Shown here piece by piece: positions 12,990 to 60,433 of a stretch of 64,000 nucleotides of DNA; position 1 is the stretch's first letter, and each line of letters starts with the position of its first letter. The translations under genes were made by a program, and so were the position numbers. The stretch covers positions 14,756,001 through 14,820,000 of the forward strand of contig NC_091973.1 of the NCBI RefSeq assembly GCF_036711975.1, given 5' to 3'. The DNA is from Onthophagus taurus (lineage: Eukaryota > Arthropoda > Insecta > Coleoptera > Scarabaeidae). Below the pieces are notes generated by a model that ran no database searches, had not been told where the DNA came from, and saw only the letters and a list, made by a program, of their open reading frames with translations.

Positions 12990-13378
12990 AAATGCTAAAA
13001 TAAAATTAAAAGAGTCAAGCACTAATGATTTGAAATCTGCTACAAAGTTAGCTTTACGTGCCGTAAAAGGTATTGCCAAAAAGAAACTTCGTTCTAGAGT
13101 TATTACAGTTCCAAAAAGCGGTGGTATACTTCCGCCTATTGCAATTTTTGCTGGATTAAGTGAATTAGGAGCTCTAGCAGGTGGCACTGCTTCCGTTGTA
13201 AGTCAATAACGCGAAGCAAGCACAAGCGGCACTCAAGGAAAGCCAAAGACATAATTAGACAATGGAATCAATAGCTTTAGGTAAAGGTCTGTATTTAAAA
13301 CCATATAAAAAAGGATTAGGTGTTTTTTTAAAGAAACGCAAAAAAAAAACATACAACAACAACAACAGAAAGCGCTAA
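12990..13378 (+). pseudogene. Adenovirus pX-like membrane-active segment, broken
   Basis: Matches the C-terminal part of the element 2 PLA2 protein (50732-51649): a basic stretch, VPKSGGILPPIAIFAG (the GG-hydrophobic motif typical of pX precursors), an Ala/Gly-rich helix, then GLYLKPYKKGLGVF. No ATG precedes it. A frame change near 13208 and a TAG near 13256 break it. It lies just upstream of and one frame apart from the protease (pX frame 2, protease frame 1), as in element 2. It appears to have been separated from its PLA2 partner. Confidence 0.75.
13324..13330 (+). promoter_or_regulatory. Candidate -1 frameshift site T_TTT_TTA
   Basis: The heptamer is in register with the pX-like frame (codons TTT TTA at 13325-13330). 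A -1 slip enters the protease frame with no stop before the ALTNLD protease start; the pX frame stops at 13376-13378. An A run at 13340-13349 (A_AAA_AAA in register) is a second possible slip site. Element 2 has A_AAA_AAC at the equivalent position. Confidence 0.55.
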
Positions 13379-13728
13379 CAAACCTTGACTTGATACGTTA
13401 TGTAAAAATGTTGGGGTTACCAGAGTTTCGAGGGATATTCATGCAAGATAAATTACCTCTGCGTATTAATAATAATGAAAGAGGTATTATTAACTTGGAT
13501 AGTGTGAAAGGACCTGGCACTCATTGGACAGCCTATATTAAGAAAGGAAATATAATTAATTATTTTGATAGTTTTGGTAATTTACAACCAAGTAAAAAAA
13601 TTGTAAACTATTTTAAGAGTGCTGGAAATAATGTAATTATTAAATACAATCACAATCAATATCAAACCTACAACACAAGTAATTGTGGTTATTTATGTTT
13701 AAATTTCTTATCATCAAACACATTATAG
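13372..13728 (+). CDS. Adenain-like cysteine protease
   Basis: Maturation protease. Visible: ALTNLDLIRYVKMLG, FRGIFMQDKLP, then catalytic-site candidates GTHWTAY (His), YFDSFGNLQPS (Asp) and NTSNCGYLCLNFL (Cys). About 118 residues, small as usual for Polinton adenain homologues. The conserved part begins before the first ATG of the frame (13390), so translation probably starts upstream: the frame is open back through an oligo-A and CAA run to the slippery heptamer at 13324. Followed closely by the minor capsid gene (13745). Confidence 0.88.
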   Translation, partial: ALTNLDLIRYVKMLGLPEFRGIFMQDKLPLRINNNERGIINLDSVKGPGTHWTAYIKKGNIINYFDSFGNLQPSKKIVNYFKSAGNNVIIKYNHNQYQTYNTSNCGYLCLNFLSSNTL

Positions 13729-43162: not shown

Positions 43163-44924
43163 CAATCCAATTTTAAGTTATCCAGATTTCTCAGAGGAAA
43201 ACCAATTTATTTTGCAAACCGATGCTTCTGGAATAGCGATAGATGCAGTGTTATCAAATAAAGATGATAGGCCAGTAGCTTATGCTAGCCGCTCATTAAA
43301 CTCGGCAGAAATTAATTATCCTACAATAGAAAAGGACCATAGTATGGGCAATTAAACACTTTCGACCATATCTTTACGGAAGACATTTCAAAATTCTAAC
43401 CGACCATAAACTATTAATTTATTTGTTTAATATTTCCGATCCTACTAGTCGATTAACAAAATTTATATTATGTCTAGAAGAGTATGATTTCGTAGTTGAA
43501 TTCATAAAAGGTAAAGGAAACGTTACGGCGGACGCGTTGTGTCGGATTCTGACATCAACTCAACTAAAAGAAATGAATGAAAACATAATTTCAGTAATGA
43601 CTAGAGCACAAATAAGAAAAGAGCAAGAAGTGGATAGAGAATTATTAGCAAATAATGATCAAAATATTTCTCGCGTTCGGCTTGATCACCCGAAAGTCGT
43701 AGAGGTATTGAAAAAAGATGCGGAAGGTATAGAATTATTGAAATTAGGTAACAAAGATAAGAAATCGTTAAATGAGATAAACTAAAAAAATTTTTTATGT
43801 ACCATCAAAATCTGTTATATTTTAAAATTCTGCAAGCGATAAATAAGAACTCCAATTGAGATATGAAAAAGATTATTTTAAACGATTTTCACTTATTACC
43901 AAGTAGTGGTCATGAAGGTGTTAAAAGAATGGTAAATAACATTAAAAAATATTACTATTGGTACGGAATTAATAAAGATGTTTATAACTTTGTGAGAAAG
44001 TGTGACTCATGTCAAAAACAAAAGCATTGTAAATACGTTAAGGAACCCATGGTAATCACAACTACTGCTACAGCAGCATTTCAAACAATTTACCTAGACG
44101 TTGTAGGTCCATTAAACAAGATGATAATGGGAATTCCTAGATCTTAACATTGCAATGCGAACTGACAAAATATACAGAGGCATACCCAGTCAAAACAAAA
44201 GATTCTGTTACAATAGCTAGAGCATTTGTTGACAACTTTGTATTGAGATACGGCATTCCTAATGAAATTGCAACCGATAGAGGCACTAAATTTATTTCAT
44301 CTACTTTCAATGAAATATGTAAACTACTTAAAGTCAAACAACTTCAATCCACCGCTTATCATCATGAAAGTATAGGTTGGTTAGAAAACTCACATAAGTC
44401 CTCAGGTGCTTATCTTAGAATCCAAACAGATAATTGTAGTGATAGATAGAGCGATTGGATACCATATTGGTCATTCTCTTACAACACAACTGTTCACACC
44501 GAAACATTGTATAGGCCATTTGAATTGGTATTCGGAAGAGTTTGTAACATTCCATCTAATATATTAACGAGTATTGACCCAGTTTATAATTTCAGTGATT
44601 ATCCATCCGAACTAAGATACAGGTTACAAAAATCTCAGTTAGATGCACACGATTTAGTTCTTTTAAAAAACGAAGTAGGCGGTATAAGTTAAGTAGTTTA
44701 TATAAGGGTCTGTTCGTAGTTGTAGAAGATTTATCTCCTAATGTAAAAATAGTTAAGAATGGGTTAGAAATAATTGTGCATAAGAATCGCACTAAACCTT
44801 TTTATAAAAAATAAAAAAAAATTTTTAATAATTTTAAATAAATAGAATATTCATTTTAATGTATATTTTTATAGGGTTGTTTCTTTAGATGGAGTGGATT
44901 ATCGTATTAAGTGGGGATATTAGA

Positions 44925-45061
44925 ATTAGATATTAGTTAGCGTTAAGTGATAACAGATAGAATATGTAATACAGTCGACCTATGCAGTTGAATAAACTAT
45001 TATGTGGAACACCATAATATAAGTATATCGGTATTTTAATATAAGGAGACTCAACCTTTAC
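44925..45061 (+). repeat. Probable Gypsy LTR followed by primer-binding-like site
   Basis: After the polypurine AAGTGGGGA (about 44917-44925) there is a short AT-rich segment ending CCTTTACA, directly followed by TGGCGATCCTGCAAACC (45062), which looks like a Gypsy primer-binding site. An LTR flanked by a polypurine tract on its left and a binding site on its right implies two Gypsy copies sharing an LTR. Left boundary approximate. Confidence 0.5.
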
Positions 45062-45640
45062 ATGGCGATCCTGCAAACCGAGCGAATGGAAAATAGAAGA
45101 AAAATATAAATTAAAAAAAAAAATATCCTTGAAGATATATTATATAAAACACCATCAGGAAATTATAAGAATAAAAAGAAGATGAGGTATAATCAATCAA
45201 AAGTTATCCTCTTTTGATTGATTATACTCCATCTTTGAAGAATTAAGAAATTAATCAATCAATCAGCAGCAGGGAATGCAGTAACCAACAATTGGACATA
45301 TTCAGATTTAGTTTTGATAATAGGGTCAGTTGTTTTAGCTTTATTTTTAATATATTTTGTAGTGCGAAAAATTAAAACTTATATCTAAAAAATAATGCGT
45401 CAGGAAATTACTCGCCACGAACTTGCGAAATCCCAAAGTGAAATGGTTTAAGTACGTCAGGTGAAGAACCGCAGTAAAATTGATGACTAATAAATAAAAC
45501 CAAACTTCAAATTGACTCCAATGCATACGCAAATAAAAAATTAAATAAAATAAGTAATTAAGTAAGGTAACAAATAAATAACAAAAATAATAATAATAAT
45601 ATAAATCTATAAGTCCTGAAATTTCTATTGATTTTGACAT
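45062..45640 (+). other. Leader of a second Gypsy copy, with hairpin and membrane-helix ORF
   Basis: Contains a near-perfect hairpin (arms 45179-45203 and 45211-45235) and an open frame with one transmembrane helix (NNWTYSDLVLIIGSVVLALF, then IYFVVRKIKTYI, about 45270-45387), then MRQEITRHELAKSQSEMV followed by a stop. This is the pattern of the gag leader of some insect Gypsy elements, recognised from memory only. The copy is cut off near 45640; 45640-45775 is AT-rich with no gene. Confidence 0.4.
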
Positions 45641-45777
45641 AGTGATCAAGAATCATCTTAATTATAATGAAATAATTAATTCATTTTTTAAATAAAAACA
45701 ATAATATTATAAATTCTAACAAATATAAAAATGATTACTCAGAAATGGAAATTAATTAAATCTATAAGAAAAAAAAA

Positions 45778-46540
45778 ATGAATGATAATAACGCCATTTT
45801 TGTCAAAGCAGATAAGGGAGCATGTTTTGTGATTCTCTCTAAACTTGCTAATTTTCGTTTTCTTTTTAATAGAGTGCTTAATTACCCCCTTTCTGAAAAT
45901 AATAAAACAAGCGAAATTAACTACATACACAATTTAGCTCATAACAATAATTTTCCTAAACATATCATTGACAAACTTTTTTATAAAATTCAATAACAAG
46001 ATGACCCCCTTTACAGCATAAATAAAGTTAATAAAATTTATAAAAACTTACAAAATTACAAAATTTAAACCTATAACTTATAATCATGTTACATCCCGTG
46101 CTCAACATATTTTTTCAAAATTTAACATTTCTCTTGCTTATTCTAATAATAATGCCATTTTGAAGCTTCTTTCTAATTATAACCCTAAAAATTCTGATAT
46201 ATTAAAAGAGAGCGGAGTGTATTCAATTTGATGTTCCAATTGCGAAGCCATATATGTTGGTGAGACAGGATCCGCACTTGGGGCCCGTGTTCGCGAGCAT
46301 GAATAAGGTGAATTCCAATATTTATAAACACCATATTGAAACTGGGCATAATATTAATTATAAAGGTATAAAACTTTTGCACAAATGTAATAAAAGTCAG
46401 AAACTGGATCTTCTTGAAATTTTTGAAATTGTTAAACATAAAAATAATAATGAATGTATACTTTTGAATGATCAGCTTCAATTAATACAGAAACCTATTG
46501 TTGTTTTTTTGAAAGATTTTAAACTCAAATGTTGATTATT
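45778..46540 (+). pseudogene. Internally deleted PLE, third piece
   Basis: 45778-45996 gives FVKADKGACFVILSK, the PLE RT N-terminal motif. After a large deletion, from about 46200 the frames give SGVYSI, CSNCEAIYVGETGSALGARVREHE (GIY-YIG core with its Cys pair) and the endonuclease tail to 46535. TGA and TAA codons interrupt it. 46540-46740 looks like its 3' UTR. Confidence 0.78.
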
Positions 46541-46740
46541 TTTTGAATTTCCCTCCATCGCGAACACGTTTCCCCAACCTGTTGTTTTATTCTGTATGGT
46601 CGGTTCAGTCTCTTCTTGTTCCTCCACCGCATCGCTGCGGGACTTCTAACAAAATTCTTTCAAAATTTATTTATCTTTTTCGGTCATTTATTTGGTTAAA
46701 AGTCTCGCAGCCAGTTTTTGTATTTTTTGTACACTGCTTT

Positions 46741-47442
46741 CACCACAGATAATGGACAATACCAATGAACAAGATTACCTATGGGATTAAAAATAAGCCT
46801 AAATGCATTTTCTAGAGCAATGACGTTAGCAATATCAGGGTTAAATTATGAAAGTTGTTTTGTTTATTTAGACGATTTAATTGTTTTTGGAAATAGCTTA
46901 ATTCAACACAGTAAAAATTTAGTTAAAGTTTTGAATAGGTTAAGGAAATTTGAAACTAAATCCTCACTAATACGAATTTTTAATGAAACAAATTTTGTAC
47001 TTAGGTCATATTATATCATCTGAAGGAATTCTTCCCGATCCAGAAAATTATGTTAAATTATCCCACACCCAAAGATCCTAATGAAACAAAAAGGTTTGTC
47101 GCGTCTGCAAACTATTATCCTAAATTATCGAAAAAAGGAGTCAAATTTATATGGACTGAACAATGTCAGAAATCATTTGAAACATTAAAACAAATTTTAG
47201 TAAAACACCCAATCCTTCAGTATTCTGATGTTTCAGATAAAAATCCATTAATCCTTCTTAAGATTAATGAACGGTTCGGAAGTTGCTTTAGGTGCAGTGC
47301 TTCTAACAAAAAAGATGAGTTCGGCATAAAGAGGGTCGAATCCAAGCCTGGCTCGATCTTTCATCGTGATTTTCACGGTTTAGCAGTTAATTTCGTAAAT
47401 TTGAAATTTCTACCTCACAGTATCCATTTCAGTGACTTGTAG
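46741..47442 (+). pseudogene. Second Gypsy RT/RNase H fragment
   Basis: RLPMGLKISLNAFSRAMTLAISG and FVYLDDLIVFGNSLIQH (YLDD box intact), then after a frame break YPTPKDPNETKRFVASANYYP and WTEQCQKSFETLKQIL. It resembles but is not a copy of the Gypsy at 41750-42290. Truncated at both sides. Confidence 0.8.
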
Positions 47443-47609
47443 CTATAATTTTTGATGGTCCAGTTTGGGATATATCTAATTTTGAAGTGAAATAATTAAA
47501 TCTCTTCATCATACATGGCTATAAGGCCGATATTGCAGGAGTTTGTGTAAATACACGTGAATTCGTGCGGGTCTAGAACCGGTAAGGTAACTTGATTTTC
47601 CTTCTTACA

Positions 47610-48521
47610 ATGGAAAATCTAGACGATTTAAAGTTTATTCAACTTAAAAACATTCATCATAATTTGGGTGCAGACTCTTCCGGTAATAAACATGAATTGA
47701 TTAGTAAACTTAAGAATGTTTTAAATAATTTAAATAATATAGATAAAACTACAATTCCTGTTTCTGACGATGACCTTGACGGTTCGTTTAACAGTTGTAC
47801 TAGCGTCGAGACTATTATCGAATCTAAACCTAAACACGTAAAATTAAAAAAAGTACGGAATTGACCAGTTGGAGAAAGATATTAGATATTTAAAGATTAG
47901 ATTAACTAAGTCATTAAAGTCGCGATCAAAAAAGTGCCTTAAAAAATCCGATTTGGTGACAGACGTGCTAAATAAGAAATCATTGACACTGGAAACTGAC
48001 AATGAGAAATCATTGGAATTGCCTCCTACGGCTGCAACTTCTGTTCCTGTTGTACATGCGGAGGGACCGAATCTTGCGGGTCTTACCCCTAAGACGAAGG
48101 TGTTAATACTGGGCGACAGCCACGCGCTTAGTGGTAGTGATTATCTGCGTAATTACTTCCTGGCACGTTTGAGATTCTTACTATATGTAAACCGAATGCT
48201 TATCTTGACGAAGTTGTTAAGGATATTAAATTATTATGTGCTAATTTTACTAAATCTGATTTTGTGATCTTATTTGGAGGTTGCAATAACGCGTTGAGTA
48301 ATTGTAAGATTACAAATGATGTACTAAAAAAAGTTAGATCTGTCAGTAGTATAACTAATGTTATTTTCATGTCTGTTCCTTTCTGGAACCAGAAACCACA
48401 ATTTGATAATTATATTTACAAAATTAATCGAGATATATATCCTCTCATATACAGGAGTAGTATAGATTCGCCGATTCAAGAACCTCCTCCTCGAACCTGC
48501 GTTCTAGGAGGAGGTTCTTGA
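47610..48521 (+). pseudogene. SAP-domain plus SGNH-hydrolase-like ORF, frameshifted
   Basis: From ATG 47610: a SAP-like helix pair (FIQLKNIHHNLGADSSGNKHELISKL), an acidic linker, a stop near 47864, then VLILGDSHALSG (SGNH block I) and, after another frame change, VILFGGCNNAL and SVPFWNQKP. Such DNA-binding plus SGNH combinations occur in insect retroelement ORFs; the parent element is not identifiable. The frame ends in the hairpin repeat at 48470. Confidence 0.55.
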
Positions 48522-49040
48522 ATCGGCAAATTTTTTGGGGGTCAGAGGAGGTTCGATGAGGAGAGGAGGTTCTTGAATCGGCGATTCTTTTGAGGGTCGG
48601 AGGAGGTCAATTAACTTGAGAAGGTCATGTTATTTTGACGAAATTATTAAAAATTTATCTTTATTAAAAATGTATCTTTATTTAGGTTATGTTATTAAAA
48701 ATTTATCTTTATATGTAACCTGTTTACCTAGATGAAAACAATTACTATGTTTATCCTTCGACGCTTCTCAATGAACTGTTAATGTTTTCGATATATCTCT
48801 TAACTTATTGTACACAAAGGTATACGGTTTTGGGACATGTAGGTATACAAACAAGTGAGTCATAACTTACCTGCGAGATATTTTTTATTTTATTATGTAA
48901 AGGTGTACAGGTATTTAAGAATATGCGAGGAGTTTCTTGAATCGGCAAATTTTTTGGGAGGACAGGTTTGAGGAGGTCAACTAACTTGTTAGTAGTAGAT
49001 GAGTCATGATCCACCTGCGAGATATTTTTTAAGAGCTTCT
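48470..49040. repeat. Hairpin and dispersed repeats left of element 2
   Basis: A perfect 22-bp inverted repeat (48470-48491 and 48506-48527; GCCGATTCAAGAACC...) opens a series of AGGAGGTTCTTGAATCGGC copies (48506, 48564, about 48926). A second pair of direct repeats carries ACCTGCGAGATATTTTTTA (about 48868 and 49011). No gene. They may be the eroded end of element 2. 48600-48840 holds further short repeats (AAAAATTTATCTTTAT). Confidence 0.75.
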
Positions 49041-49165
49041 TAATAAATTTGTCATGCGTTTTGTCTGACGTCTCACGATATAATGACATGTTAGAACATG
49101 TATAATAGATATATTCGGTAATGATGTGAAATATTACTCCCCCCACCAGCAACCTTATGTATTGC

Positions 49166-49173
49166 TATAAATA
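49166..49173 (+). promoter_or_regulatory. TATA box of the first gene of element 2
   Basis: TATAAATA, about 135 bp upstream of the predicted exon 1 end. It is followed by a spacing suitable for initiation near the CGCAGAGTGTTGTGCTTCAG region (about 49196-49216). A GTAAGG and two TATTTAG/CATTTAG(T)ACA repeats further on could be alternative splice sites in the leader. Confidence 0.55.
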
Positions 49174-49300
49174 CAAACGTTGGTCGAAGTTGTACCGCAG
49201 AGTGTTGTGCTTCAGAGTAAGGTTTTTGTGTATTTAGTACATATTAAAAATATCGTGTAGATTTTTGGTGCATTTAGTACAGAGGATTTTTAACGTAACG

Positions 49301-50265
49301 AGTAAGTAATTCAAATGTAATACAAGTAGATAATGTACTAATGTAAACAATAATATTGATGTTTAGTGGCAACCAGACCGAACCCCAAATGTCCAACTAA
49401 GAGAGCTGCTGTAAATTCATTTGAAAAGGGTGAAAATAAAAAACCTGCCCGAAACATCAAAATGGAGGGTAATTGTAATGAGACAACTGCAACAAATGTG
49501 TCGCTAGGAAGTGATAATCAAAGAAAAAAGGATGTGGTATTCGATGGAATTAATTTGTTGGCTTCCGACTTAGCGGAGTACGTATTTCCTAGCAATCAAC
49601 AACATTATGTAGAAAATTGTGGAAAGTTACCTTTCACAAGTAACGTAGTATTAAATGAAGCAGTGAAAAATAATCTCCAAAAAGGTAATCAAGCGCCATT
49701 ATTCTCCGAGAGTACATATTATTTAAATAAAAGTCGAACGAAATGGATATCGGTTGGCATGTCTGCCAATCTACATTTTGATCCGGTTATAAGATTAATG
49801 GGAAAAGGACAATGCATAACTTTTACCGAAGACGAATGGAAAAATGTGATTAATAGCAGACAATTGATTATGAATAGCTTTGTTGGTGATTTATCGACAC
49901 CACCACATTTCGTTGTAAGCGGCGTGACCTGCAGCAGCCAATGGATAGAAAATGTACGAAAAGTGTTGAAAATGGAAAGGGGGTCAGAAATATTTTACCT
50001 GGCTTACGACTCGTTACACGAATTGTGGAAACTTAGCGATTTAGTTTCGAGTAGGGTAGAAGTATTAAAGTGTATGGAATATAAAAATTATTACGATAGC
50101 GTGATCGATGTGGTATCAACAATGCAAGGTGATATAAAATCGAATATATTGGTTGCTTCAAACGGTGCACCAAGTGAACATTTGTGCGTAACTAAAGAAC
50201 TGCTCGTATACGGTATGGATAAGATATTACTGGATTTAGATTTGCACGCATTAATGAAGATGTGA
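49301..50265 (+). CDS. Hypothetical protein; start codon formed by splicing; PC4-like candidate
   Basis: The frame has no ATG at its 5' end, but a predicted 65-nt intron (GTAAGT at 49302, TTTAG at 49366) joins A49301 to TG at 49367, giving AACG-ATG-GCA. The product is about 300 residues. A segment WISVGMSANLHFDPVIRLMG...ITFTEDEWKNVIN resembles the 213-residue protein of element 3 (61579-62220: VGISVARGF...HILSFLREDWEQLIN). This strand-strand-helix pattern recalls PC4-like single-strand DNA-binding proteins, which is only a suggestion. Confidence 0.6.
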
Positions 50266-50275
50266 AGTGAATAAA

Positions 50276-50500
50276 ATGGAAAAAAAAGTGACGTTTTGCG
50301 AATCGAAAAATAGAGTGTACCGAATGCACACTTGGACGTTTGCTTACAGACAATCAAGGATAAGTGACTGGGAAGAAAAGATGTTGGACGGAATTAGATT
50401 TAAGACTAGGATAAGAAACGTAAATAAGTTATTAGAAAAATATTTAGATGTAGATTATAGATTAAATATATATCAAGAACGTTTTAGCATTGTAGAGTAA
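50276..50500 (+). CDS. Small hypothetical protein, 74 residues
   Basis: ATG 50276 (MEKKVTFCESKNRVYRMHTW...), charged, ends NIYQERFSIVE. It starts 8 nt after the stop of the preceding gene. Function unknown. Downstream 50571-50600 is an AAT microsatellite and 50640-50670 an ATTTAAAAGGAATAAAAG stretch that could be the promoter of the PLA2 gene. Confidence 0.5.
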   Translation: MEKKVTFCESKNRVYRMHTWTFAYRQSRISDWEEKMLDGIRFKTRIRNVNKLLEKYLDVDYRLNIYQERFSIVE

Positions 50501-50731
50501 TCGAAATGTTTTTAACTGAGTAACGATTAATTTTTAGGATAGGTATTAGTAGATTTAAGTGTAGCTGAATAATAATAATAATAATAATAATATTAATAGA
50601 TTTAAGTATAAATTAAGAGCAAAACTGTTTTTGTAAAATATTTAAAAGGAATAAAAGCTTAAAGCACAACAGCAGAGCTTCATTTCTAGTTTTTAACTGT
50701 GAAGAAAAGGAAGAAGGAGTGAAATTATAAA

Positions 50732-51649
50732 ATGAATTTGTTAGAACCTAATCGTAACAGTTATCGTTTGACAGGCAAACGAATTGGTCGAGGATTTTTT
50801 AACAAGTTGATAGATAAACTTCCGATAGAACTTCATTTGCCAGGATATAATTTTTGTGGACCGGGTACCAAGTTGGAAAAGAGATTATCGAGAGGAGATC
50901 GAGGCGTGAATCCATTAGACGAAGCGTGTAAGAAACACGATATAGCATATACGGTCAGTTCAAATTTAAAATTTAGACACGACGCAGACAGAGCATTATA
51001 TAAAGCAGCGAAAGAACGAATACGAAATAAAGAGTCTACTCTTGGAGAAAAAGTGGCATCGTCCGCAGTTGCCGCCTTAATGAAAGCAAAAGTAGCGGTC
51101 GGTATGGGCGTAGGTAGAAAAAGAAATCGTACGGGTCGACGACCTTTAAAAAAAGTCCGAACGCGTGTAAAGCGTGGTGGAGCTATATCTTTTGTAGATG
51201 CACTTCGATTCGCTCGCAACGCAATATCGAGATCAGGTGCTAAGAATTTGTTGACAAACGTTAAAGCGGCGTACGGAGCTTTGAAAAAGATAAGAAAAAG
51301 AATTTCCGAACCTAGAGGTCGAGTTATTCGAATTCCGAAAACGGGAGGATTTTTACCTTTAATTCCCCTGTTCGCAGCTTTAGGTGCCCTAGGTAGTATC
51401 GGCGGTGGTGCTGCCGCTATTGCAAGAACTATAAACAACGCGAAAACAGCTAGAGAGCAATTAGATGAAGAACGAAGACATAACAAGGCTATGGAAGCAA
51501 AGGCCGTAGGTAGCGGATTTTATATAAAACCATATAAGAAAGGTTGCGGTTTGTTTATTGAAGGAAAGGGGAATAATGTTGGCGGCACAGGTTACTTCAA
51601 TAAGCCCTATAAGAAAGGTTGCGGTATAACCACTAGTTCAAAAAACTAG
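50732..51649 (+). CDS. PLA2 - pX-like fusion protein
   Basis: 305 residues, intact. N-terminal PLA2 domain: LHLPGYNFCGPGTKL calcium loop and LDEACKKHDIAYT catalytic HD (residues about 33-75), then a very basic linker (GRKRNRTGRRPLKKVRTRVKR), a helical part, and a pX-like segment IPKTGGFLPLIPLFAALGAL with Gly/Ala-rich continuation. Two KPYKKGCG repeats close the protein. I-E-G-K-G near the end fits the adenain cleavage pattern. It ends AAA AAC TAG, which forms the slippery site. Role inferred: membrane penetration and genome condensation. Confidence 0.9.
   Translation: MNLLEPNRNSYRLTGKRIGRGFFNKLIDKLPIELHLPGYNFCGPGTKLEKRLSRGDRGVNPLDEACKKHDIAYTVSSNLKFRHDADRALYKAAKERIRNKESTLGEKVASSAVAALMKAKVAVGMGVGRKRNRTGRRPLKKVRTRVKRGGAISFVDALRFARNAISRSGAKNLLTNVKAAYGALKKIRKRISEPRGRVIRIPKTGGFLPLIPLFAALGALGSIGGGAAAIARTINNAKTAREQLDEERRHNKAMEAKAVGSGFYIKPYKKGCGLFIEGKGNNVGGTGYFNKPYKKGCGITTSSKN
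51640..51646 (+). promoter_or_regulatory. -1 ribosomal frameshift site A_AAA_AAC
   Basis: The heptamer is exactly in register with the PLA2-pX frame (codons AAA 51641-51643, AAC 51644-51646) and followed at once by its TAG stop (51647-51649). A -1 slip continues CTA GTT CGA... into the protease frame, which has a stop just upstream (TAG 51634-51636) and no ATG before its conserved core. A possible stem-loop (CTCG.CGT ... ACG.CGAG, about 51659-51684) lies 12 nt downstream. Confidence 0.72.
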
Positions 51650-52026
51650 TTCGAATACCTCGTCGTGCGTTAACTAACGTCGAGTTGGAAAAGTTTGCGA
51701 AAGTACTAAAAATTCCACATTTTCGGGGTATATTTATGAGAGACAATCTCCCGAGTAAGATTAAAAAGAAGGAAAGAGGTATTGTTAACTTGGATAACTT
51801 GAAAGGACGAGGGACTCATTGGGTCGCCTATAAGAAAGACGACAAGGACATATACTATTTCGACAGTTACGGTGATTTAAGACCGCCATTAGAAATTGAA
51901 CAATATTTGCTGTCAGACGGTAGGGGTGGTCAAGTAAAGTATAATTACTGTCGATATCAAAGAGAAATAGATCAAAATTGCGGACAGTTGTGTCTGAAGT
52001 TTCTAAGTAATAAAAGAACCTATTAG
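51646..52026 (+). CDS. Adenain-like protease, expressed by predicted frameshift
   Basis: About 126 residues. Conserved RRALTNVELEKFAKVLK, FRGIFMRDNLP, GTHWVAY (His), YYFDSYGDLRPP (Asp) and DQNCGQLCLKFLS (Cys). The first in-frame ATG is within FRGIFMRD, after conserved sequence, so independent initiation would remove part of the enzyme. Co-translation as a PLA2-pX-protease fusion by -1 frameshift is the best reading. The minor capsid gene follows 30 nt later. Confidence 0.9.
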   Translation, partial: LVRIPRRALTNVELEKFAKVLKIPHFRGIFMRDNLPSKIKKKERGIVNLDNLKGRGTHWVAYKKDDKDIYYFDSYGDLRPPLEIEQYLLSDGRGGQVKYNYCRYQREIDQNCGQLCLKFLSNKRTY

Positions 52027-52056
52027 AGTCTAGAGACGTTTAGACGTTCAGAAGTA

Positions 52057-52788
52057 ATGGAGAAAGAAGCAATACACACGACATATACATTTACGTTGAC
52101 TGGAAAGTCATCTGAATTGACTTGTAATTTTAATCCTCCGATCTATTTGAACGAATTTGGTAGTTACGAGTTGGCTCTTTTGAATTTCGAAACGTTTAAT
52201 AGTTTAGCAAACGTTAATAAAAACAACAACGTAATCCAATACGAAGATAAGACAGGACATTTTAAAAACAATATAATAGTACCTGTTGGAACGTACGATA
52301 TTGATGATATTGCCGAGTTCGTGAATGAACAGCTAGACAAAAGACACGCTAAAAGTGTCGTAATAAGGATTAAGGGGAATAATAACACACAACATTCTTT
52401 AATAAAAAGTACCCGTCGAATTAATTTTGCATGCGATAATTCTATAGGGCCGTTACTTGGCTTCAAGCCTCAAATATTACCTAGAGATACGGAAGTGGAA
52501 TCCGATTTCGTAGTAAACATAAATAAAACGAACGCCTTACAAATTTATTGTAATTTAGTGACGGGATCGTATAATAACGGAGTTCCCGTGCACGTTTTAT
52601 ATCATTTTTTTCCAAACGTTCCGGCAGGTTTTAAAATAATCGAATCACCACAACTACCTATTTATTTACCGGTTTTAACGAACGTGATTAGTAGCTTAAC
52701 AGTACGTATACTTGATCAGGACGGAAACTTGGTAGACTTCAGAGAAGAAGAAATAACAGTGAGAGTTCACCTGAGATCGATAAATTGA
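52057..52788 (+). CDS. Penton-like minor capsid protein
   Basis: 243 residues, intact; homologue of 13745-14455. Shared blocks: SYELALLNFETFNS, LGFKPQIL, VHVLYHFFPNVPAGFKI, LTVRILDQDGNLVDFR. Beta-rich; by order and conservation the vertex capsid protein. Between protease and major capsid gene as in element 1. Confidence 0.86.
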   Translation: MEKEAIHTTYTFTLTGKSSELTCNFNPPIYLNEFGSYELALLNFETFNSLANVNKNNNVIQYEDKTGHFKNNIIVPVGTYDIDDIAEFVNEQLDKRHAKSVVIRIKGNNNTQHSLIKSTRRINFACDNSIGPLLGFKPQILPRDTEVESDFVVNINKTNALQIYCNLVTGSYNNGVPVHVLYHFFPNVPAGFKIIESPQLPIYLPVLTNVISSLTVRILDQDGNLVDFREEEITVRVHLRSIN

Positions 52789-52811
52789 ATTATTTAAATT
52801 TGACTAACGTT

Positions 52812-53003
52812 ATGACAGTGTTATATCAAAACAAAAGAATGCGGTGGTCAAGAAGAGACAGAGCGAGAAAATTGTTTAATGGAGAAAACTATAAAGCGCG
52901 CGTCATCAGTCAACGTAGCGGCAGTAGAAGACGATCCATTCATCGATTATCACCAGTCAATCGAAGGTATTTAGTTCAGTTAGGATACGAAGTGTTAAAG
53001 TAA
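52812..53003 (+). CDS. Small basic protein conserved upstream of MCP
   Basis: 63 residues from ATG 52812 (frame open from 52785). Arg-rich (RMRWSRRDRARK, SGSRRRSIHRLSP) with the conserved end PVNRRYLVQLGYEVLK, matching element 1's 14445-14579. Its TAA overlaps the capsid ATG as TAATG (53001-53005), suggesting coupled translation or reinitiation from one mRNA. A small DNA-binding virion protein would fit the charge. Confidence 0.65.
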   Translation: MTVLYQNKRMRWSRRDRARKLFNGENYKARVISQRSGSRRRSIHRLSPVNRRYLVQLGYEVLK

Positions 53004-54262
53004 TGGACATTTTAAAAGTAACGGATAAGATAAAAACAGATCACTCTATCGTAAGTTATGAATTCCATTCGCATCAACCGTTTGGATCGACCACGTTCGA
53101 TAACAATGACGAAATTAGAATTTCAATTCCGGAAATAGATAATTATACTTTACCGAGCGAGAGTTATCTATACGTCGAGGGTAGCGTTCGTAAGTTAGCC
53201 GCGGACGGAAGTATAACAAAAGATGCCAGCGCAACGGGGCAATTGGTTAACAATCCCGTTGCATTTATGTTTAGCGATATTCGATATCTTATTAACGGAG
53301 TACATGTTGATGGTGTGCGGAACGTCGGTGTAAGCTCATGCATGAAGGGTTATTTCTCATCTACACAGAACGAGGTGGTGAAATTAGCGAACGCCGGTTG
53401 GCACATAAAACCTTGGAAAGATGATATAGCGGGTGTTTCAAAGGCTTTAGATAAAAATGGAAATTTCGGTCTTAGCGTTCCGCTAAAATCGTTGCTAGGA
53501 TTCGCAGAAGATTTCAGAAAGATCATGATGAACGTTCGACAGGAACTTGTGCTAATTCGCGGACACGATGATACGGACGTCATCTTTCAACCAGCAGCCG
53601 CTCCGAACGACGAAAAATTGAAATTGATCATTAATAAAATTATATGGAGAGTTCCTCACGTGGCGGTGGGATTACGCGAACAGTTGGCATTAACAAAACT
53701 ATCAGAAAGAAACGTAGACATTCACGTTCCTTTTCGATCGTGGGAAATACACGAGTACCCTCAATTACCTCAAACTACGAAGCAATCTTGGTCCGTCAAA
53801 ACTGCTCCACAATTGGAAACGCCTAGATTTATAATCTTCGGATTTCAAACAAATCGAAAGGGTATATTTAAAGGAAACATGGCATTATTTGATAATATAA
53901 ACTTAACGAACGTAACGGTTTTCTTGAATGGAGAACGTTTTCCGTACGATAATTTGAATGTGGATTTTGATAACAATCACTATGCGATTTTGTATGATAT
54001 GTATTCAAGATTTCAGCAAGCATACTACTATCAAGAAAGCGAACCTTTGTTTTCACCGGAAGAATTTAAAACTTACGCGCCGTTAATTGGAATCGATTGC
54101 ACGTATCAACAGGAAGCAATACATAAAAGCGGAGTAGAAATAAAAATCGAGTATTCAACGAAAAATCCAATTCCGGAAGGTACGACAGCTTACGCATTAA
54201 TTCTGCATGACAGAGCATTTGTGTATTCGCCTCTTACGAAAATGGTTAAGCAATTAATATAG
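53003..54262 (+). CDS. Major capsid protein (double jelly-roll), intact
   Basis: 419 residues, uninterrupted: MDILKVTDKIKTDHS, FDNNDEIRISIPEIDNYTLPS, FMFSDIRYLINGVHVDGVRN, SVPLKSLLGFAEDFRKIMM, FRSWEIHEYPQLP, IFGFQTNRKGIF, VFLNGERFPYDN, LHDRAFVYSPLTKMV. Same family as 14593-15798 and 62901-64000. Assembles the virion shell of Polinton/adintovirus-like elements. The start overlaps the preceding stop. Confidence 0.92.
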   Translation: MDILKVTDKIKTDHSIVSYEFHSHQPFGSTTFDNNDEIRISIPEIDNYTLPSESYLYVEGSVRKLAADGSITKDASATGQLVNNPVAFMFSDIRYLINGVHVDGVRNVGVSSCMKGYFSSTQNEVVKLANAGWHIKPWKDDIAGVSKALDKNGNFGLSVPLKSLLGFAEDFRKIMMNVRQELVLIRGHDDTDVIFQPAAAPNDEKLKLIINKIIWRVPHVAVGLREQLALTKLSERNVDIHVPFRSWEIHEYPQLPQTTKQSWSVKTAPQLETPRFIIFGFQTNRKGIFKGNMALFDNINLTNVTVFLNGERFPYDNLNVDFDNNHYAILYDMYSRFQQAYYYQESEPLFSPEEFKTYAPLIGIDCTYQQEAIHKSGVEIKIEYSTKNPIPEGTTAYALILHDRAFVYSPLTKMVKQLI

Positions 54263-54335
54263 TGGTACTGTTGAAGCAACGTCATTTAGTGTATCTCTAA
54301 ACATCGAAGGAAACGTTTGCATATAGTGGTATATT

Positions 54336-54815
54336 ATGGATATTATGGTTTTTCAAAGGGATTTTATTATTTTGGACATTCAAGGTTTCACGATAAACGA
54401 TGAAGAATTTATCCCAAAGGAACTGGCTTCTTACGACAGTAATCATTGTATAAGTCATTACGTGTTTCAACCTAGTCGAAGCTTTTCTTCACTATCTACC
54501 AAATTTCGCAATACGGCGAATTGGTTAATGAGTCATCATCATTGTATTGATTGGAACGACGGGTTTGTTCCTGCGTCTCGTTTCGATGAGATCGTTTATT
54601 ATTTGTGTCGTTCGACAAAAGTAGCGTACGTAAAAGGACGTGAGAAAGCTACATTTTTAAGAAGAATTTTAACAATACCGGTAAAAGAATTGCCGGAAAA
54701 TGAATGCAAATTGGAGGTTGGTGCGCCGATGTGTCCCTATCATAAAAAGAGACCAAGTATGTGCTCCTTATCGAATGTTTTTTATTTATTTTCATACGTA
54801 TTCAGACATCTATAA
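54336..54815 (+). CDS. Conserved 'DIQGF' protein
   Basis: 159 residues; homologue of 15917-16435 and 62371-62883 at the same position after the capsid gene. Visible: IILDIQGFTI, FIPKELAS, HHHCIDWNDGFVP, AYVKGREKATFLRRIL, and a CPYHKKRPSMCSLSNVFYL tail. Function unknown; see element 1 entry for the nuclease hypothesis. Confidence 0.7.
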   Translation: MDIMVFQRDFIILDIQGFTINDEEFIPKELASYDSNHCISHYVFQPSRSFSSLSTKFRNTANWLMSHHHCIDWNDGFVPASRFDEIVYYLCRSTKVAYVKGREKATFLRRILTIPVKELPENECKLEVGAPMCPYHKKRPSMCSLSNVFYLFSYVFRHL

Positions 54816-54871
54816 CTATATGTAAACGAATTGAGAAAGGCAGACGGGTAGTAGCGGTAGAGCAGTTCAAG

Positions 54872-55204
54872 ATGGAACGTCTTTGGCGGTTAGTTACCAG
54901 ATTGGGACTTTCAACTTTTATAATTAATAAAGTGTGGGATATTATGGAAAGATACGAATCTGATTTATCTTTTGCGAATATTAAAAACTACGAATTATGT
55001 TATTTACCAATCGATTATTATATCAATAAAGTAAAGCCATTAGATTTGGCGGCGGTTTGGTTTAAATTACCGTTGAAGTATAGAAACGATGAGCGATTAC
55101 AAAGCAAGCTGCCCTGTTTTGAACATTATAATTTGCCTCATTGGGAAACGCATATTGATGGTCCACCATCGGCAAGAAAGGATTGTTCTTTATGTATGGT
55201 TTAG
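54872..55204 (+). CDS. Hypothetical protein, 110 residues
   Basis: MERLWRLVTRLGLST..., ending KDCSLCMV (CxxC). The frame is open upstream to 54761 but the ATG at 54872 follows a plausible leader. Not recognised. AATAATAATAAAAGATTG after the stop gives polyadenylation signals. Confidence 0.5.
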   Translation: MERLWRLVTRLGLSTFIINKVWDIMERYESDLSFANIKNYELCYLPIDYYINKVKPLDLAAVWFKLPLKYRNDERLQSKLPCFEHYNLPHWETHIDGPPSARKDCSLCMV

Positions 55205-55679
55205 TATATAAACATTGTCAGTTATAGATTGTAAATTAATAATAATAAAAGATTGTAAAAAGTGTAAAAAGTTGTTTTAATTTAAAAGAAAAAAATAGTT
55301 AATCTAAATGAATACATGGTATGTATACATTGGGTTGGGTTGGTATGACTTGGGTTGTACATTGAAAAGGAAGAAAGAAAGGGGAAAAAAGGAAGAAAAA
55401 AGGAAGAAAAAAAAAAAAAAAAAAAAAAAAAAGAAAAGAAAAAGGGAAAAGGATTGTTTATTGAAGCTCCTCCTATGCTCCTCCCATGCTCCTCCTCAGG
55501 CTCCTCCCAAAGTGGAGATGGAAGAGTGGGGATGGGAGTGGGGGAAATCTAAAAATCCCCCCCCCCCCCGGTTGCCAGGAAAGTAGAGCCAGAAAAAAAG
55601 TACCCCCACTCTAACTCCGCCCATTCCCCACTCCTCCCCCTTGTCACGCCCCACCCCACGCCCCCCTTCATTACTCTAG
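55205..55679. repeat. Low-complexity spacer
   Basis: An A/G tract (55366-55460) with a run of A's, repeated CTCCTCC(C/T)ATG units, a C12-13 run (about 55558-55570) and C-rich DNA. ORFs here are tract artefacts. It separates the virion block from the next promoter. Confidence 0.85.
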
Positions 55680-56453
55680 TATAAGAAGGCACCTCCCAGC
55701 CTTTGAAAGTCTTCAGTTCTTCAGTTTTTTGGTAAGTACAACCTTCTTTATTATCATGTTTATATAACGTTCATTTTCTCTCCATCACTACAGCTCTTTC
55801 TACAACTTTCTCTTTTTTGGTGAGTAAAACTATATTTGTTTTGCATGTTTATATAATATTTAAAATTGTTTTTTCCACTCCTAGACATCCTTGCTCATTC
55901 AGCTTTCTCTTTTTTTGCTGTGTTTTATTTGGTAAGTAACCTTTTTTACTTTGCTTATATAATATGTAAAATATTCTTGTTTTGTTTCATCATAACAGTT
56001 CTTTCTACTTTGTTTTTGTGAGTACAACTTGTTTATTTGTTTGTTATGTTAAATTGTTATTTTTATTTTTTCAATTCCTACAGGACCTTACTACTGATCA
56101 CTTCCATTTTGTGTTTGATCAGTTCGATCAGTTTTGATAACTTCGTTATCTCGGCGACTTTTTTTCTGGTAAGCCTTATAGCCTTCTTTTCCTTTGCATA
56201 TATTGTTGCTAATCTGTTTTTTTTTCATTCCTATAGCTCCTTCTATTTTAAATCTTAATTTTTGTTGGTAAGCATAACTTTATTATTCGAACGTTTGTAT
56301 CATAATATCTACAATAATTTTTTATCATTCACATCCTATCATTCAGCACCCACTGCAATTAGATTTTAACGTTCTTTTCATCAAGCGATGTAAGTATACA
56401 TGATTTTTTATTAAAATAAAATAAATTAATGTATGAATCTTTTTTTTATCAAG
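55680..56453 (+). promoter_or_regulatory. TATA promoter and seven-intron 5' leader
   Basis: TATAAG (55680-55685) precedes a predicted start near CTTCAGTTC. Then seven GT-AG introns follow one another: 55732-55793, 55820-55884, 55932-55998, 56018-56083, 56169-56236, 56268-56346, 56390-56453, all 62-79 nt, leaving untranslated exons of 26, 47, 19, 85, 31 and 43 nt. Donors GTAAGT/GTGAGT/GTAAGC and pyrimidine-rich acceptors are strong. The last acceptor directly precedes ATG 56454. Introns 1-3 share a TTTATATAA/TTATATAAT block, so they probably arose by tandem duplication. Confidence 0.65.
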
Positions 56454-57434
56454 ATGTCTCAAGACGGTTTTAGTCAAATTGATTTAACTGCTCCCGGTTT
56501 CGCCAGCAGCCAGGAGTCATTCCTGTTAAACAGTTTTGACATAAACCTGTTGAACATATCGACTGTTGAGAAGGCGCTGGATCCAAACGTGCAACCTAAT
56601 GAGCAGCCGATGGATCCTAACGTAGAATCTAATGCGCAGCAAGATCCGTCGCTTCTGAACGTCGCAGGTTCCGCGAATGTCGACGATAAAAATGTGAAAC
56701 GCCTTTCACTTCGTCGGAATTCGGGGAACCGTGAACATTGGAAGAAGGCTGCAGGTGTGTGGGTACCGTCAGAAAAGTATAGAGAGGAAAGAAGGGAGGC
56801 ACGTGCTCGTTCGCGACGTAGCCAACGCAAGTATGTGTCAGTTGAACAAGCGACCCCGTCGAAGGTTGAAATGACACAGTCGAAAGTGGTTACCGAGAAC
56901 GAGTCCGATAAATCCGACGACTCTCTTGCTTTAATGGCGGTATCACAACACTGTAGTAACCGGAAGTATCTTAAAGCTACTAAGGCTTCTTTTTCTTCTT
57001 CTAAAGCTTCATTGGCTCCCGTTACTAACTCAAATATCCCTAACACCGAAATTCCTTCGTTAAGCCCGAAAGTACACATCTTAAGGGTTGACAATATTCC
57101 TGCTAATATTCCTGCTACTTCAGATATTTCCGATGTGTCTGCCAGCCTTTTTTCAAACGCAATGTGTACAGCAGTAGAAACAACCAAAGGGGAGATTTTG
57201 GCCGAAATTAATAATTTGTATCAAAATTTTTATAAAGACCTTCATGCAAAGGTTCTTCAATTGCAGACCTCTTTGAGAGAACTTTCACAGTTTAGAGAAG
57301 GGCTGGCATCGAGCTGTAACAACCCTTTAACAATATCGCTCGACATCACCATAGCATCATTAACCTGTGAAATTAAAAAGGCTGAATGTATTTTATCTAG
57401 TTTCACTACTAATAGCGTAAACTTCCCTTCCTAG
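56454..57434 (+). CDS. Hypothetical protein after the intron-rich leader, 326 residues
   Basis: Start MSQDGFSQIDLTAPGF directly after the last predicted acceptor; an in-frame ATG at 56433 would lie in the intron. Regions: an Asn/Pro repeat (DPNVQPNEQPMDPNVESN), basic RRNSGNREHWKK and RSRRSQRK, Ser-rich middle, C-terminal coiled coil (EINNLYQNFYKDLHAKVLQL). No family recognised. A virion-associated or fibre-like protein is possible. An antisense ORF of similar length is judged a shadow. Confidence 0.6.
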   Translation: MSQDGFSQIDLTAPGFASSQESFLLNSFDINLLNISTVEKALDPNVQPNEQPMDPNVESNAQQDPSLLNVAGSANVDDKNVKRLSLRRNSGNREHWKKAAGVWVPSEKYREERREARARSRRSQRKYVSVEQATPSKVEMTQSKVVTENESDKSDDSLALMAVSQHCSNRKYLKATKASFSSSKASLAPVTNSNIPNTEIPSLSPKVHILRVDNIPANIPATSDISDVSASLFSNAMCTAVETTKGEILAEINNLYQNFYKDLHAKVLQLQTSLRELSQFREGLASSCNNPLTISLDITIASLTCEIKKAECILSSFTTNSVNFPS

Positions 57435-57441
57435 CTTAAAG

Positions 57442-57796
57442 ATGACTAATAATATGGATAATATGAGAGTTAATCATATGCTAAGACTATGTGAAGTGGA
57501 GCAGAAAGTTGCCTCGTTGGAGGTAAAATTAGATGCTATATTTAAGTTGGTACGTTATACTTATAATACTTTTTTCCATGTCATTAATTTTATCTTCTCA
57601 GCTGCAGAGTGTGTCAGAATCGGCTGTGGTGAGGGGTGAAATGCATGTGCAAAACATGCACATTAACCGTTGCACATGTGTTAGTTCACCGACTCCGGCA
57701 CCGACTCCGGCAACGACTCCGACAACTACTCCGGCACCAGCAGCACCACCACCTCCTTACCAAAGATATCAAGAAGAGGAGGAGGAGGAGTGGTAA
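57442..57796 (+). CDS. Two-exon coiled-coil protein with PPxY motif
   Basis: Exon 1 57442-57549 (coiled coil MLRLCEVEQKVASLEVKLDA), intron 57550-57601 (52 nt, GTACGT...TTCTCAG, phase 0), exon 2 to 57796. Exon 2 has HVQNMHINRCTC, a Thr/Pro/Ala repeat (TPAPTPATTPTTTPAPA), then PPPPYQRYQEEEEEEW. PPPPY is a PPxY late-domain-type motif, which recruits Nedd4-like ligases in several viral proteins. Starts 7 nt after the preceding gene. Without splicing the frame stops at GCGEG. Confidence 0.6.
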
Positions 57797-57819
57797 CTAC
57801 TCCTTCTCTTCTTTTATTT

Positions 57820-57906
57820 ATTAAGTTAATATTAAGTTAATTATTAAGTTAATTATTAAGTTAATTATTAAGTTAATTATTAAGTTAATTATTAAGTTAA
57901 TTATTA
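57820..57906. repeat. Tandem TTAAGTTAATTA repeats
   Basis: Six to seven head-to-tail 12-bp units ahead of the ATPase gene, followed by TATCTATATAAAG (about 57930), a likely TATA box. Confidence 0.85.
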
Positions 57907-58010
57907 TTTTATACTTCCAATATACTCAATATATCTATATAAAGTTACTTTTGCTATATTTTCATTCAGTCTTATCCTGTTAATGTTATAATTCATTTAG
58001 TACGAGAATC

Positions 58011-59455: not shown

Positions 59456-59685
59456 AAGATGGCGCGTTGAACGCATAAAGGCGCGCCTCACAACTCTTGA
59501 ATGCGCGTGCGCAGGAACTTGGGAATATTCCGGAAAATAATAATAACACAATTTAACACAATTTAATTCCCCCCCCCCCCAATCAACCCAATAAAAGTAT
59601 TAATAAACATTTCTATAATAATAAACATTACATAATAAATAGTTACAAAAAAATAATAAAAACCTTAATGTTATGGTACTTTTTT

Positions 59686-59890: not shown

Positions 59891-59897
59891 GTAAAAG

Positions 59898-60123: not shown

Positions 60124-60433
60124 ACGTTCGGTTTCTAAAGTAAAACTGATTATGAGTTACGCGATACAATGCTTTCCTCGCCGGGGCGGAAGTGTCAACT
60201 TACGACAATCGGCGCGGCGCATCACCAAGTAAAGTGCAATGCACCTCGCCGGCGGGAGTGTCAAGTTACAATCAATGCTGAGCAATGGAATAATTGACCT
60301 AAATGAAATGCTATACATATATATAATTAATATTAAGAAAGTAAAAAAAAATAATACAAATTATAAAATTTTTTAATGCGTTTTCATTAACAAAAATGAT
60401 GTAAGTGAAAAAAAATACATTTAAATAAAAGAA

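What the first reader, a model, noticed from the sequence alone, without database searches (positions are those of the whole stretch)
51634..52026. Protease of element 2 appears to be made by -1 ribosomal frameshifting from a PLA2-pX ORF
Seen: A_AAA_AAC in register with the PLA2-pX codons, followed at once by TAG; the protease lies in the -1 frame, has a stop just upstream of the heptamer and no ATG before its conserved ALTN core. A stem-loop candidate lies 12 nt on. Known: such heptamers drive -1 frameshifting in retroviruses and coronaviruses. Inference: a PLA2-pX-protease fusion would package the protease with its substrates. I know of no description in Polintons.
Basis: partly seen in the sequence, partly recalled or inferred. 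Interest (0 to 1): 0.9.

Follow-up and report, generated by a model that had tools for sequence, protein, structure and literature searches.

The report
Frameshift-made protease in beetle Polintons
Virus-like Polinton elements in a dung-beetle genome appear to make their capsid-maturation protease only when the ribosome slips back one base at the end of another virion gene, a trick best known from retroviruses and kept across very different elements.

Summary
In the window (probably Onthophagus taurus) the PLA2-pX ORF ends TCA AAA AAC TAG (heptamer 51640-51646). An adenain-like protease (Foldseek best hit: adenovirus proteinase) lies in the -1 frame with no ATG before its core.

The site is conserved. 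Of 12 Polinton lineages read in this genome (7 deep, protease identity 43-58%), 11 carry an in-phase slippery heptamer at the junction: A_AAA_AAC in nine, U_UUU_UUA in two; their representatives have no ATG before the core. The 12th lacks a heptamer but has an ATG overlapping the pX stop. 105 of 119 loci are intact at the junction. Elsewhere in the same ORFs such heptamers occur 27 times in 2,820 codons. Of 240 pX homologues, 179 end within 0-2 residues of Lys-Asn.

Not supported: the stem-loop is no better than shuffles; only lineage E has a strong hairpin. Slippage and packaging are untested; some metagenomic relatives have usable ATGs.

Verdict: conserved -1 frameshifting is the best explanation; a new variant of a known kind. 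A 2024 preprint hints at frameshifted adintovirus Hexon-protease fusions, not this pair.

The parts
50732..51649 (+). PLA2-pX ORF (305 aa; N-terminal phospholipase A2-like domain, C-terminal pX-like and basic region), the zero frame
   Evidence: (Pfam PF08398 E 1.2e-12; Adeno_PX only E 0.09, below its cut-off)
51634..51636 (+). stop codon TAG that closes the -1 frame just upstream of the slippery site
51640..51646 (+). slippery heptamer A_AAA_AAC, in phase with PLA2-pX codons
   Evidence: kept in 67 of 67 and 63 of 63 pattern matches (up to 3 mismatches allowed) of two element families
51647..51649 (+). zero-frame stop TAG directly after the heptamer
51637..52026 (+). adenain-like protease ORF in the -1 frame, no ATG before residue 34; joined to PLA2-pX from codon CTA at 51646 if the ribosome slips (predicted fusion 305 + 126 = 431 aa)
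   Evidence: AlphaFold2 pLDDT 88.1; Foldseek best 1nln_A, E 1.3e-6
51659..51684 (+). weak stem-loop candidate 12 nt after the heptamer; not more stable than chance
13324..13330 (+). element 1 of the window: in-phase heptamer T_TTT_TTA at the homologous place (end of the pX ORF; this copy's pX frame is broken further upstream)
   Evidence: same heptamer in phase in 18 of 19 other C-lineage loci read
13309..13728 (+). element 1 protease ORF, -1 frame relative to the end of its pX ORF, no ATG before the ALTN core

Best explanation
The protease is translated only when a few per cent (rate inferred, not measured) of ribosomes finishing the PLA2-pX ORF slip back one nucleotide on A_AAA_AAC and read on in the -1 frame. 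This yields a PLA2-pX-protease fusion of about 431 aa beside a large excess of PLA2-pX alone. The fusion would bring the maturation protease into the particle in a fixed low ratio, attached to a core protein, and the protease would free itself later. Shown here: the frames, the heptamer, its phase, its conservation with synonymous codons fixed, the absence of an ATG before the core, and the predicted protease fold. Inferred: that slippage occurs, its rate, packaging and self-release.
For: Heptamer in phase and -1 ORF without an ATG before its core in the representatives of 11 of 12 lineages; 105 of 119 loci intact at the junction; 110 of the 115 loci in which the core could be located have no ATG before it. 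Two different heptamers (A_AAA_AAC; U_UUU_UUA in lineages C1 and C2) occupy the same place and phase. The one lineage lacking a heptamer (F, L076, one copy seen) has an ATG with ATGA overlap instead. Codons are fixed where amino acids alone do not require it: in the last 96 codons of 8 A-type lineages, 0 of 11 columns with an invariant amino acid use a single codon, while AAA AAC after an A-ending codon is used 8 of 8 times (S, A, Q, R residues before it); Asn AAC is the rarer codon in these ORFs (39 against 91 AAT). Of 240 pX homologues from two searches, 179 have Lys-Asn within 0-2 residues of their end, and 0 of 179 are preceded by a residue that lacks an A-ending codon (background 20.5%). 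Lineage E has a 15-bp hairpin 9 nt after its heptamer (-19.5 kcal/mol, 1 of 200 shuffles as stable; most stable hairpin of that locus). The first ATG of the window protease (residue 34) would remove helix 14-23 and strand 29-34 of the model.
Against: No transcript, ribosome profile or reporter was available. Outside lineage E no convincing downstream hairpin was found in the other 10 heptamer lineages (B z -3.1 and D5 z -2.1 only over 105 nt, D3 z -2.5 in one of four windows); pseudoknots were not tested. All DNA comes from one genome: scans of viral and prokaryote collections gave no relative with a junction. 5 of 115 loci have a Met in the protease frame before the core: L076 (lineage F), L078 (one C2 copy that also has the heptamer), and L055, L096 and L097, where an indel puts pX in the protease frame. 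In metagenomic relatives some proteases begin at an ATG: in the 7 heptamer pairs the predicted start lies upstream of the heptamer inside pX, and in 9 of 17 pairs no dual coding was found, the predicted ATG lying after the pX stop or the pairing being false. 15 of 240 pX homologues have neither Lys-Asn nor FL near the end.
Confidence: 0.84

Rival explanations
1. The protease is initiated on its own, at a non-AUG codon or by reinitiation after the pX stop (stop-start coupling), and the heptamer is incidental.
For: Lineage F has ATGA overlap of the pX stop with a protease ATG, and one C2 copy (L078) has an ATG before the core. Several metagenomic proteases begin MKLP, MLPR or MFLR just before the core, which suggests that some relatives use an AUG after or over the pX stop.
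Against: Representatives of 11 of 12 lineages have no ATG between the -1 frame stop and the core, yet all 11 carry an in-phase heptamer with fixed codons, which reinitiation does not need.
Confidence: 0.07
2. RNA polymerase slippage on the A6-A7 or T7 run adds a base to some mRNAs, and the protease is read in frame from those.
For: All heptamers lie in homopolymer runs: A6 in lineages A, B, E and G, A7 in the D lineages (longer in L085), T7 in C.
Against: Polymerase slippage needs neither a fixed codon phase nor a fixed base after the run, yet AAC is used in 9 of 9 A-type lineages against 39:91 usage elsewhere, and T_TTT_TTA is in phase too. Runs of 6-7 are short for polymerase II slippage (recalled).
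Confidence: 0.05
3. A spliced mRNA joins the protease to an upstream ATG.
For: None found; it was not tested, and GT and AG dinucleotides are common enough that sequence alone cannot exclude it.
Against: It does not explain the fixed heptamer, its phase, or its replacement by U_UUU_UUA in another lineage.
Confidence: 0.02
4. Chance or decay: the heptamer is an accident of an A-rich gene end and the protease frame is a pseudogene.
For: Some copies are damaged at the junction (14 of 119 loci not fully intact, lineage F counted among them).
Against: Heptamer rate in the overlap against the rest of the ORF; protease open with H61, D76, Q108 and C115 invariant in 53 aligned relatives; 31 loci encode the identical protease.
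Confidence: 0.02

Closest known systems
Retroviral Gag-Pro/Gag-Pol -1 frameshifting (A_AAA_AAC and U_UUU_UUA sites; Gag-Pol about 5% in HIV, PMC8537868, passages seen; site assignments recalled)
   Same: A maturation protease encoded in the -1 frame downstream of a structural protein, joined through a canonical heptamer of the same two types
   Different: A DNA element; an unrelated cysteine protease; no strong downstream structure found except in lineage E; a stop codon 0-1 codons after the heptamer in 8 of 11 heptamer lineages
Adenovirus adenain and its core-protein context (PMC8537868, passages)
   Same: Same predicted protease fold; a core protein gene is closely tied to the protease, and adenain is activated by a peptide from the C-terminus of pre-pVI
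   Different: Adenain is translated from late L3 mRNA together with pre-pVI and hexon (that passage); no frameshift fusion was described in the passages seen
Adintovirus slippery-site predictions, preprint PMC11071296 (passages and section 16 read)
   Same: Predicted -1 slippery sites near the 3' end of virion genes of Polinton relatives, and a similar relationship noted for Hexon-Adenain
   Different: Other genes (Penton, Hexon); single-tool predictions; no heptamer, conservation test or PLA2-pX partner described in the parts read
Sf Maverick 1 and 2 of Spodoptera cells (PMC5803895, passages and part 1 of section 11 read)
   Same: CAP (PLA2 domain) and PRO listed next to each other in its ORF table, PRO with the adenain triad
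   Different: Treated as separate ORFs; no frameshifting of PRO mentioned in the parts read

Membership tests
Programmed -1 ribosomal frameshift site | X_XXY_YYZ heptamer in phase with the upstream frame | tested here: met
Programmed -1 ribosomal frameshift site | Downstream ORF in -1 frame, overlapping, without its own AUG before the conserved core | tested here: met
   representatives of 11 of 12 lineages; the 12th has an ATG and no heptamer. By locus 110 of 115 have no ATG; L078 has both heptamer and ATG
Programmed -1 ribosomal frameshift site | Conservation of heptamer and phase across divergent relatives | tested here: met
   DNA, one genome; proteins, nearly all from elsewhere
Programmed -1 ribosomal frameshift site | Stimulatory RNA structure about 5-9 nt downstream | tested here: inconclusive
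   strong only in lineage E; not above chance in the window element; pseudoknots not tested
Programmed -1 ribosomal frameshift site | Measured production of the trans-frame protein | not testable with these tools
   needs reporter, ribosome profiling or mass spectrometry
Polinton/Maverick element | Double jelly-roll major capsid protein | tested here: met
   window 52928-54262, PF21738 E 9.2e-101
Polinton/Maverick element | A32-like packaging ATPase | tested here: met
   window 57984-58700, PF04665 E 1.3e-8
Polinton/Maverick element | Adenain-like cysteine protease | tested here: met
Polinton/Maverick element | Protein-primed PolB and rve integrase in the same element | tested here: inconclusive
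   not seen beside element 2 within 45-64 kb by tblastn with element 1's proteins; element 1 has rve integrase and long ORFs at 17232-19775 taken as PolB (only an Endonuclease_7 hit). Element 2 may be incomplete or divergent there
Polinton/Maverick element | Long terminal inverted repeats | tested here: inconclusive
   (ungapped repeats of 40 nt or more) found none that bracket element 2 within 45-64 kb; other copies not examined for this

The most novel reading that the evidence does not exclude
A large group of insect Polintons has an ancient Gag-Pro-like expression switch: the capsid-maturation protease is made only as a -1 frameshift extension of the PLA2-pX core protein. The slippery site has been exchanged between A_AAA_AAC and U_UUU_UUA and in places replaced by stop-start coupling, so that the ratio of protease to core protein is what selection keeps.
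Probability: 0.75. Interest if true: 0.86.

Novelty: new variant of a known kind. Interest (0 to 1): 0.8.

Why it matters
Polinton proteases are described as free-standing genes (for example PRO in PMC5803895, parts read), and Polinton particles had not been observed as of PMC8097293 (start of its abstract, seen in a search listing). If the protease is made only as a frameshift fusion, DNA elements have arrived at the same solution as retroviruses for carrying a maturation enzyme into a particle at a fixed low dose. The claim gives a short, safe reporter test, and a sequence signature (pX ending in Lys-Asn or Phe-Leu) with which gene finders could correct protease calls. The conserved heptamer in element families with many near-identical copies also argues that these elements kept making particles until recently (inference).

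Tried and rejected
Stem-loop as a general stimulator: rejected for the window element; kept for lineage E only. External DNA: viral contigs with the protease alignment (17 stretches matched a pattern, 0 relatives) and with the pX alignment (98 stretches, 0 relatives), genome contigs with pX (96 stretches, 15 loci, PLA2-like stretches in bacteria, set aside as not Polintons without further test), phages and plasmids: nothing usable. Element 3 at the right edge of the window (L120) gave no protease hit (E<=1e-3; weak pieces at E 0.005 or worse), not followed. A genome search with the ATPase was run and not used for any claim. Transcriptional slippage, splicing and free initiation were weighed as rivals.

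Rows dropped and limits: L120 and L121-L135 are not among the 119 protease loci. The genome searches print at most about 150 scored matches of 261-269 candidates, so lineages may be missing. The 240 pX homologues include two from this genome (P0121, P0126); P0183 ends in Lys-Asn but was counted as unanchored, so 180 of 240 by eye. P0242 was left out of the FL/Lys-Asn table, and two more with short or unanchored tails were dropped there (237 of 240 used). The FL/Lys-Asn contrast (42 of 57 against 38 of 180, Fisher 1.8e-12) and the chance figures are not corrected for relatedness. The overlap positions used were typed. An earlier count gave the pair counts as 9 and 8; the correct numbers are 8 and 7. 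In one search the alignment program did not line up the terminal Lys-Asn, so the 8-of-8 statement rests.

Literature: 10 of 10 searches used. 'polinton' with 'slippery' gave 1 paper; 'polinton' with 'ribosomal frameshift' 2, one of them with the term in an unrelated virus; 'maverick' with 'ribosomal frameshift' and 'transposon' 0. Of the 41 papers with 'polinton' and 'frameshift' 25 were listed and five of them searched for passages (PMC11071296, PMC8097293, PMC10120064, PMC5803895, PMC12567637). The adintovirus founding paper is not held.

Full report
What is there. The window is G000:C8:14756001-14820000 of a 290.8-Mb genome. A PLA2-pX homologue (P0126) named Onthophagus taurus lies on a contig of 34,988,216 bases, the length of contig C11, so the host is taken to be that dung beetle (inference from length and name). 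Element 2 has a PLA2-pX ORF, an ORF in the -1 frame, a double jelly-roll capsid ORF and an A32-like ATPase. The PLA2-pX ORF ends AGT TCA AAA AAC TAG. The heptamer A_AAA_AAC is 51640-51646, and the -1 ORF opens at 51637 after TAG at 51634-51636.

The downstream ORF is a protease. Pfam gives no family above its cut-off and a PDB sequence search gives nothing credible (best E 0.2). An AlphaFold2 model from 53 aligned relatives has pLDDT 88.1 and pTM 0.85, and Foldseek puts human adenovirus 2 proteinase first (1nln_A, E 1.3e-6, TM 0.69 by query length). H61, D76, Q108 and C115 are invariant in the 53 sequences; that these are catalytic is inferred from the adenain fold. The first ATG of the ORF codes residue 34, behind F29, R30 and G31, invariant in 8 sequences, so starting there would cut away the first helix and strand.

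Conservation in the same genome. Protein searches of the genome with two proteases of the window, one of a fetched locus and one database protein (150 scored matches each, lower bounds) reveal many element lineages. I read 119 protease loci and sorted them by hand into 12 lineages (7 deep: A, B, C, D, E, F, G; protease identities between deep lineages 43-58%) plus one damaged copy, H. Zero-frame codons at the junction of the representatives are: A TCA AAA AAC TAG; B GCA AAA AAC TAA; D1 CAA AAA AAC TTT TAA; D2 CAA AAA AAC TTG TAA; D3 CAA AAA AAC TTG TAG; D4 CAA AAA AAC TTT TAA; D5 CAA AAA AAC TTA TAG; E TCA AAA AAC TCT CGC AGA CGC CCT TAA; G AGA AAA AAC TAA; C1 and C2 GTT TTT TTA followed by 13-16 codons and TAA. 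In all 11 the protease is in the -1 frame. In 105 of 119 loci the heptamer is in phase with both frames open. The 14 others are damaged, indel-shifted or lack a heptamer: A 6 of 66, B 1 of 9, C2 2 of 14, D2 1 of 5, D3 1 of 3, D4 1 of 4, F 1 of 1, H 1 of 1. By letters alone 64 of the 66 A loci keep the stretch. Pattern scans find 67 of 67 family A and 63 of 63 family B junctions with the heptamer unchanged. These copies are young, so this adds little on its own, and a pattern with at most 3 mismatches favours intact ones.

A dichotomy. None of the 11 heptamer representatives has an ATG between the -1 stop and the protease core. Lineage F (L076, a single copy in the lists) has no heptamer and has ATG overlapping the pX stop as ATGA. 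This is what one expects if either device is needed and one suffices. By locus, the core could be located in 115 of 119, and 110 of these have no Met before it. The five are L076; L078, one C2 copy with both heptamer and an ATG; and L055, L096 and L097, whose Met belongs to pX read in the same frame after an indel.

Chance. In the body of the pX ORFs of 12 representatives, in-phase canonical heptamers occur 27 times in 2820 codons; in the overlaps 13 times in 158 positions. In the other two phases the overlaps hold 2 and 8, the latter partly because A runs of seven or more can be read in two phases (my reading). With the body rate, at least 11 of 12 lineages has probability 2.4e-11, and at least 6 of 7 deep lineages 1.4e-5. 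These figures treat lineages as independent, which they are not. A test less open to that is codon choice. In the last 96 codons of eight A-type lineages 0 of 11 columns with an invariant amino acid keep a single codon, whereas AAA AAC after an A-ending codon is kept in 8 of 8, although AAC is the rarer Asn codon (39 against 91) and only 38.9% of codons end in A.

Outside this genome only proteins were available. Of 240 pX homologues (120 best of each of two searches; two of them, P0121 and P0126, are from this genome), 179 have Lys-Asn with 0, 1 or 2 residues before the end. The residue before it always has an A-ending codon (0 of 179 violate; 20.5% of tail residues would). Lys-Asn occurs only 14 times in 7200 positions just upstream. 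45 lack Lys-Asn but have an F-L or F-F pair in the tail (one of these, P0242, is a pX-protease ORF in a single frame and its pair may lie in the protease part), 15 have neither, and 1 (P0183, which does end in Lys-Asn) could not be anchored. Tails of the type G-x-F-L are found in 42 of 57 sequences without Lys-Asn and 38 of 180 with it (Fisher 1.8e-12, not corrected for relatedness), as expected if T_TTT_TTA replaces A_AAA_AAC. Seventeen protease/pX pairs share a contig length; 8 can be encoded by one DNA in the -1 relation over 9-15 codons, and 7 of these force A_AAA_AA[C/T], two of them A_AAA_AAC. The eighth (P0107/P0200) has no A heptamer and begins at its own ATG.

Against the reading. In the 7 heptamer pairs the gene finder placed the protease start at an ATG inside the overlap upstream of the heptamer, so those elements could in principle initiate there; gene finders must choose a start. 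No downstream structure is general: 45-nt windows after the heptamer have z between -6.2 (E) and +1.1, and of the longer windows only B (-2.1 and -3.1), D3 (-2.5), D5 (-2.1) and E go below -2. The window's stem-loop is matched by 88 of 200 shuffles. Lineage E has a 15-bp hairpin after a 9-nt spacer, -19.5 kcal/mol, the most stable in its locus (8 of 1541 windows, all overlapping that hairpin). The adjacent stop codon in A, B and G and the near stop in the D lineages may take the stimulator's role (speculation).

Mechanism. Shown: frames, heptamer, phase, conservation, fixed codons, lack of ATG, predicted protease fold. Inferred: slippage of about 1-10%, a fusion of 431 aa, delivery of protease with PLA2-pX into the particle, and self-release. 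Adenain is activated by a peptide from the C-terminus of a core protein precursor (PMC8537868, passages). Here the protease would be born attached to the C-terminal tail of a core-like protein, so activation in cis is conceivable (speculation). P0242, a metagenomic ORF with pX and protease in one frame, and L055, L096 and L097, genomic copies in which indels put the two in one frame, show that such fusions occur; whether any works is unknown.

Known or new. -1 frameshifting on these two heptamers is a known mechanism, and retroviral Gag-Pro/Gag-Pol is the closest analogue. In the library searched, only PMC11071296 brings 'polinton' and 'slippery' together. It predicts slippery sites in adintovirus Penton and mentions Hexon-Adenain. 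PMC5803895 lists CAP (PLA2) and PRO of Spodoptera Mavericks as separate ORFs. I found no description of the PLA2-pX/protease junction, within the limits of the ten searches listed in Tried and rejected. I therefore rate it a new variant of a known kind.

Noticed in passing
L098-L100, L098:1129-1165: Lineage E has a 15-bp hairpin 9 nt after its A_AAA_AAC site, the most stable hairpin of the locus, while its zero-frame stop lies 5 codons on; lineages with the stop 0-1 codons after the heptamer lack so strong a hairpin.
   Followed up: partly
window 11845-12243 (-) and 13309-13728 (+): In element 1 the PLA2 domain and the pX part are split: PLA2 is on the opposite strand, and the pX part alone precedes the protease and ends in U_UUU_UUA; L078 and L079 show the same arrangement.
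   Followed up: partly
window 44000-61000: Element 2 has capsid, ATPase, protease and PLA2-pX, but no relative of element 1's polymerase or integrase was seen within 45-64 kb (a weak integrase hit at 44117-44527 lies outside), and no long inverted repeats bracket it; the family may be non-autonomous or this copy incomplete.
   Followed up: partly
G000: 31 protease loci encode the identical 129-aa protease, and 59 of 63 family B junctions are identical over 28 bases, which points to recent amplification in this genome.
   Followed up: no
P0242; L055, L096, L097: pX and protease in one reading frame: a 256-aa metagenomic ORF, and genomic copies with indels that put both in one frame.
   Followed up: partly
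P0226: A PLA2-pX protein filed under an Enterobacter cloacae complex genome; most likely insect DNA contaminating a bacterial assembly (guess, not tested).
   Followed up: no
window 60846-64000 (-), L120: A third, more distant Polinton (capsid 26% identical to element 2's over 371 residues) crosses the right edge of the window; its protease was not identified.
   Followed up: partly
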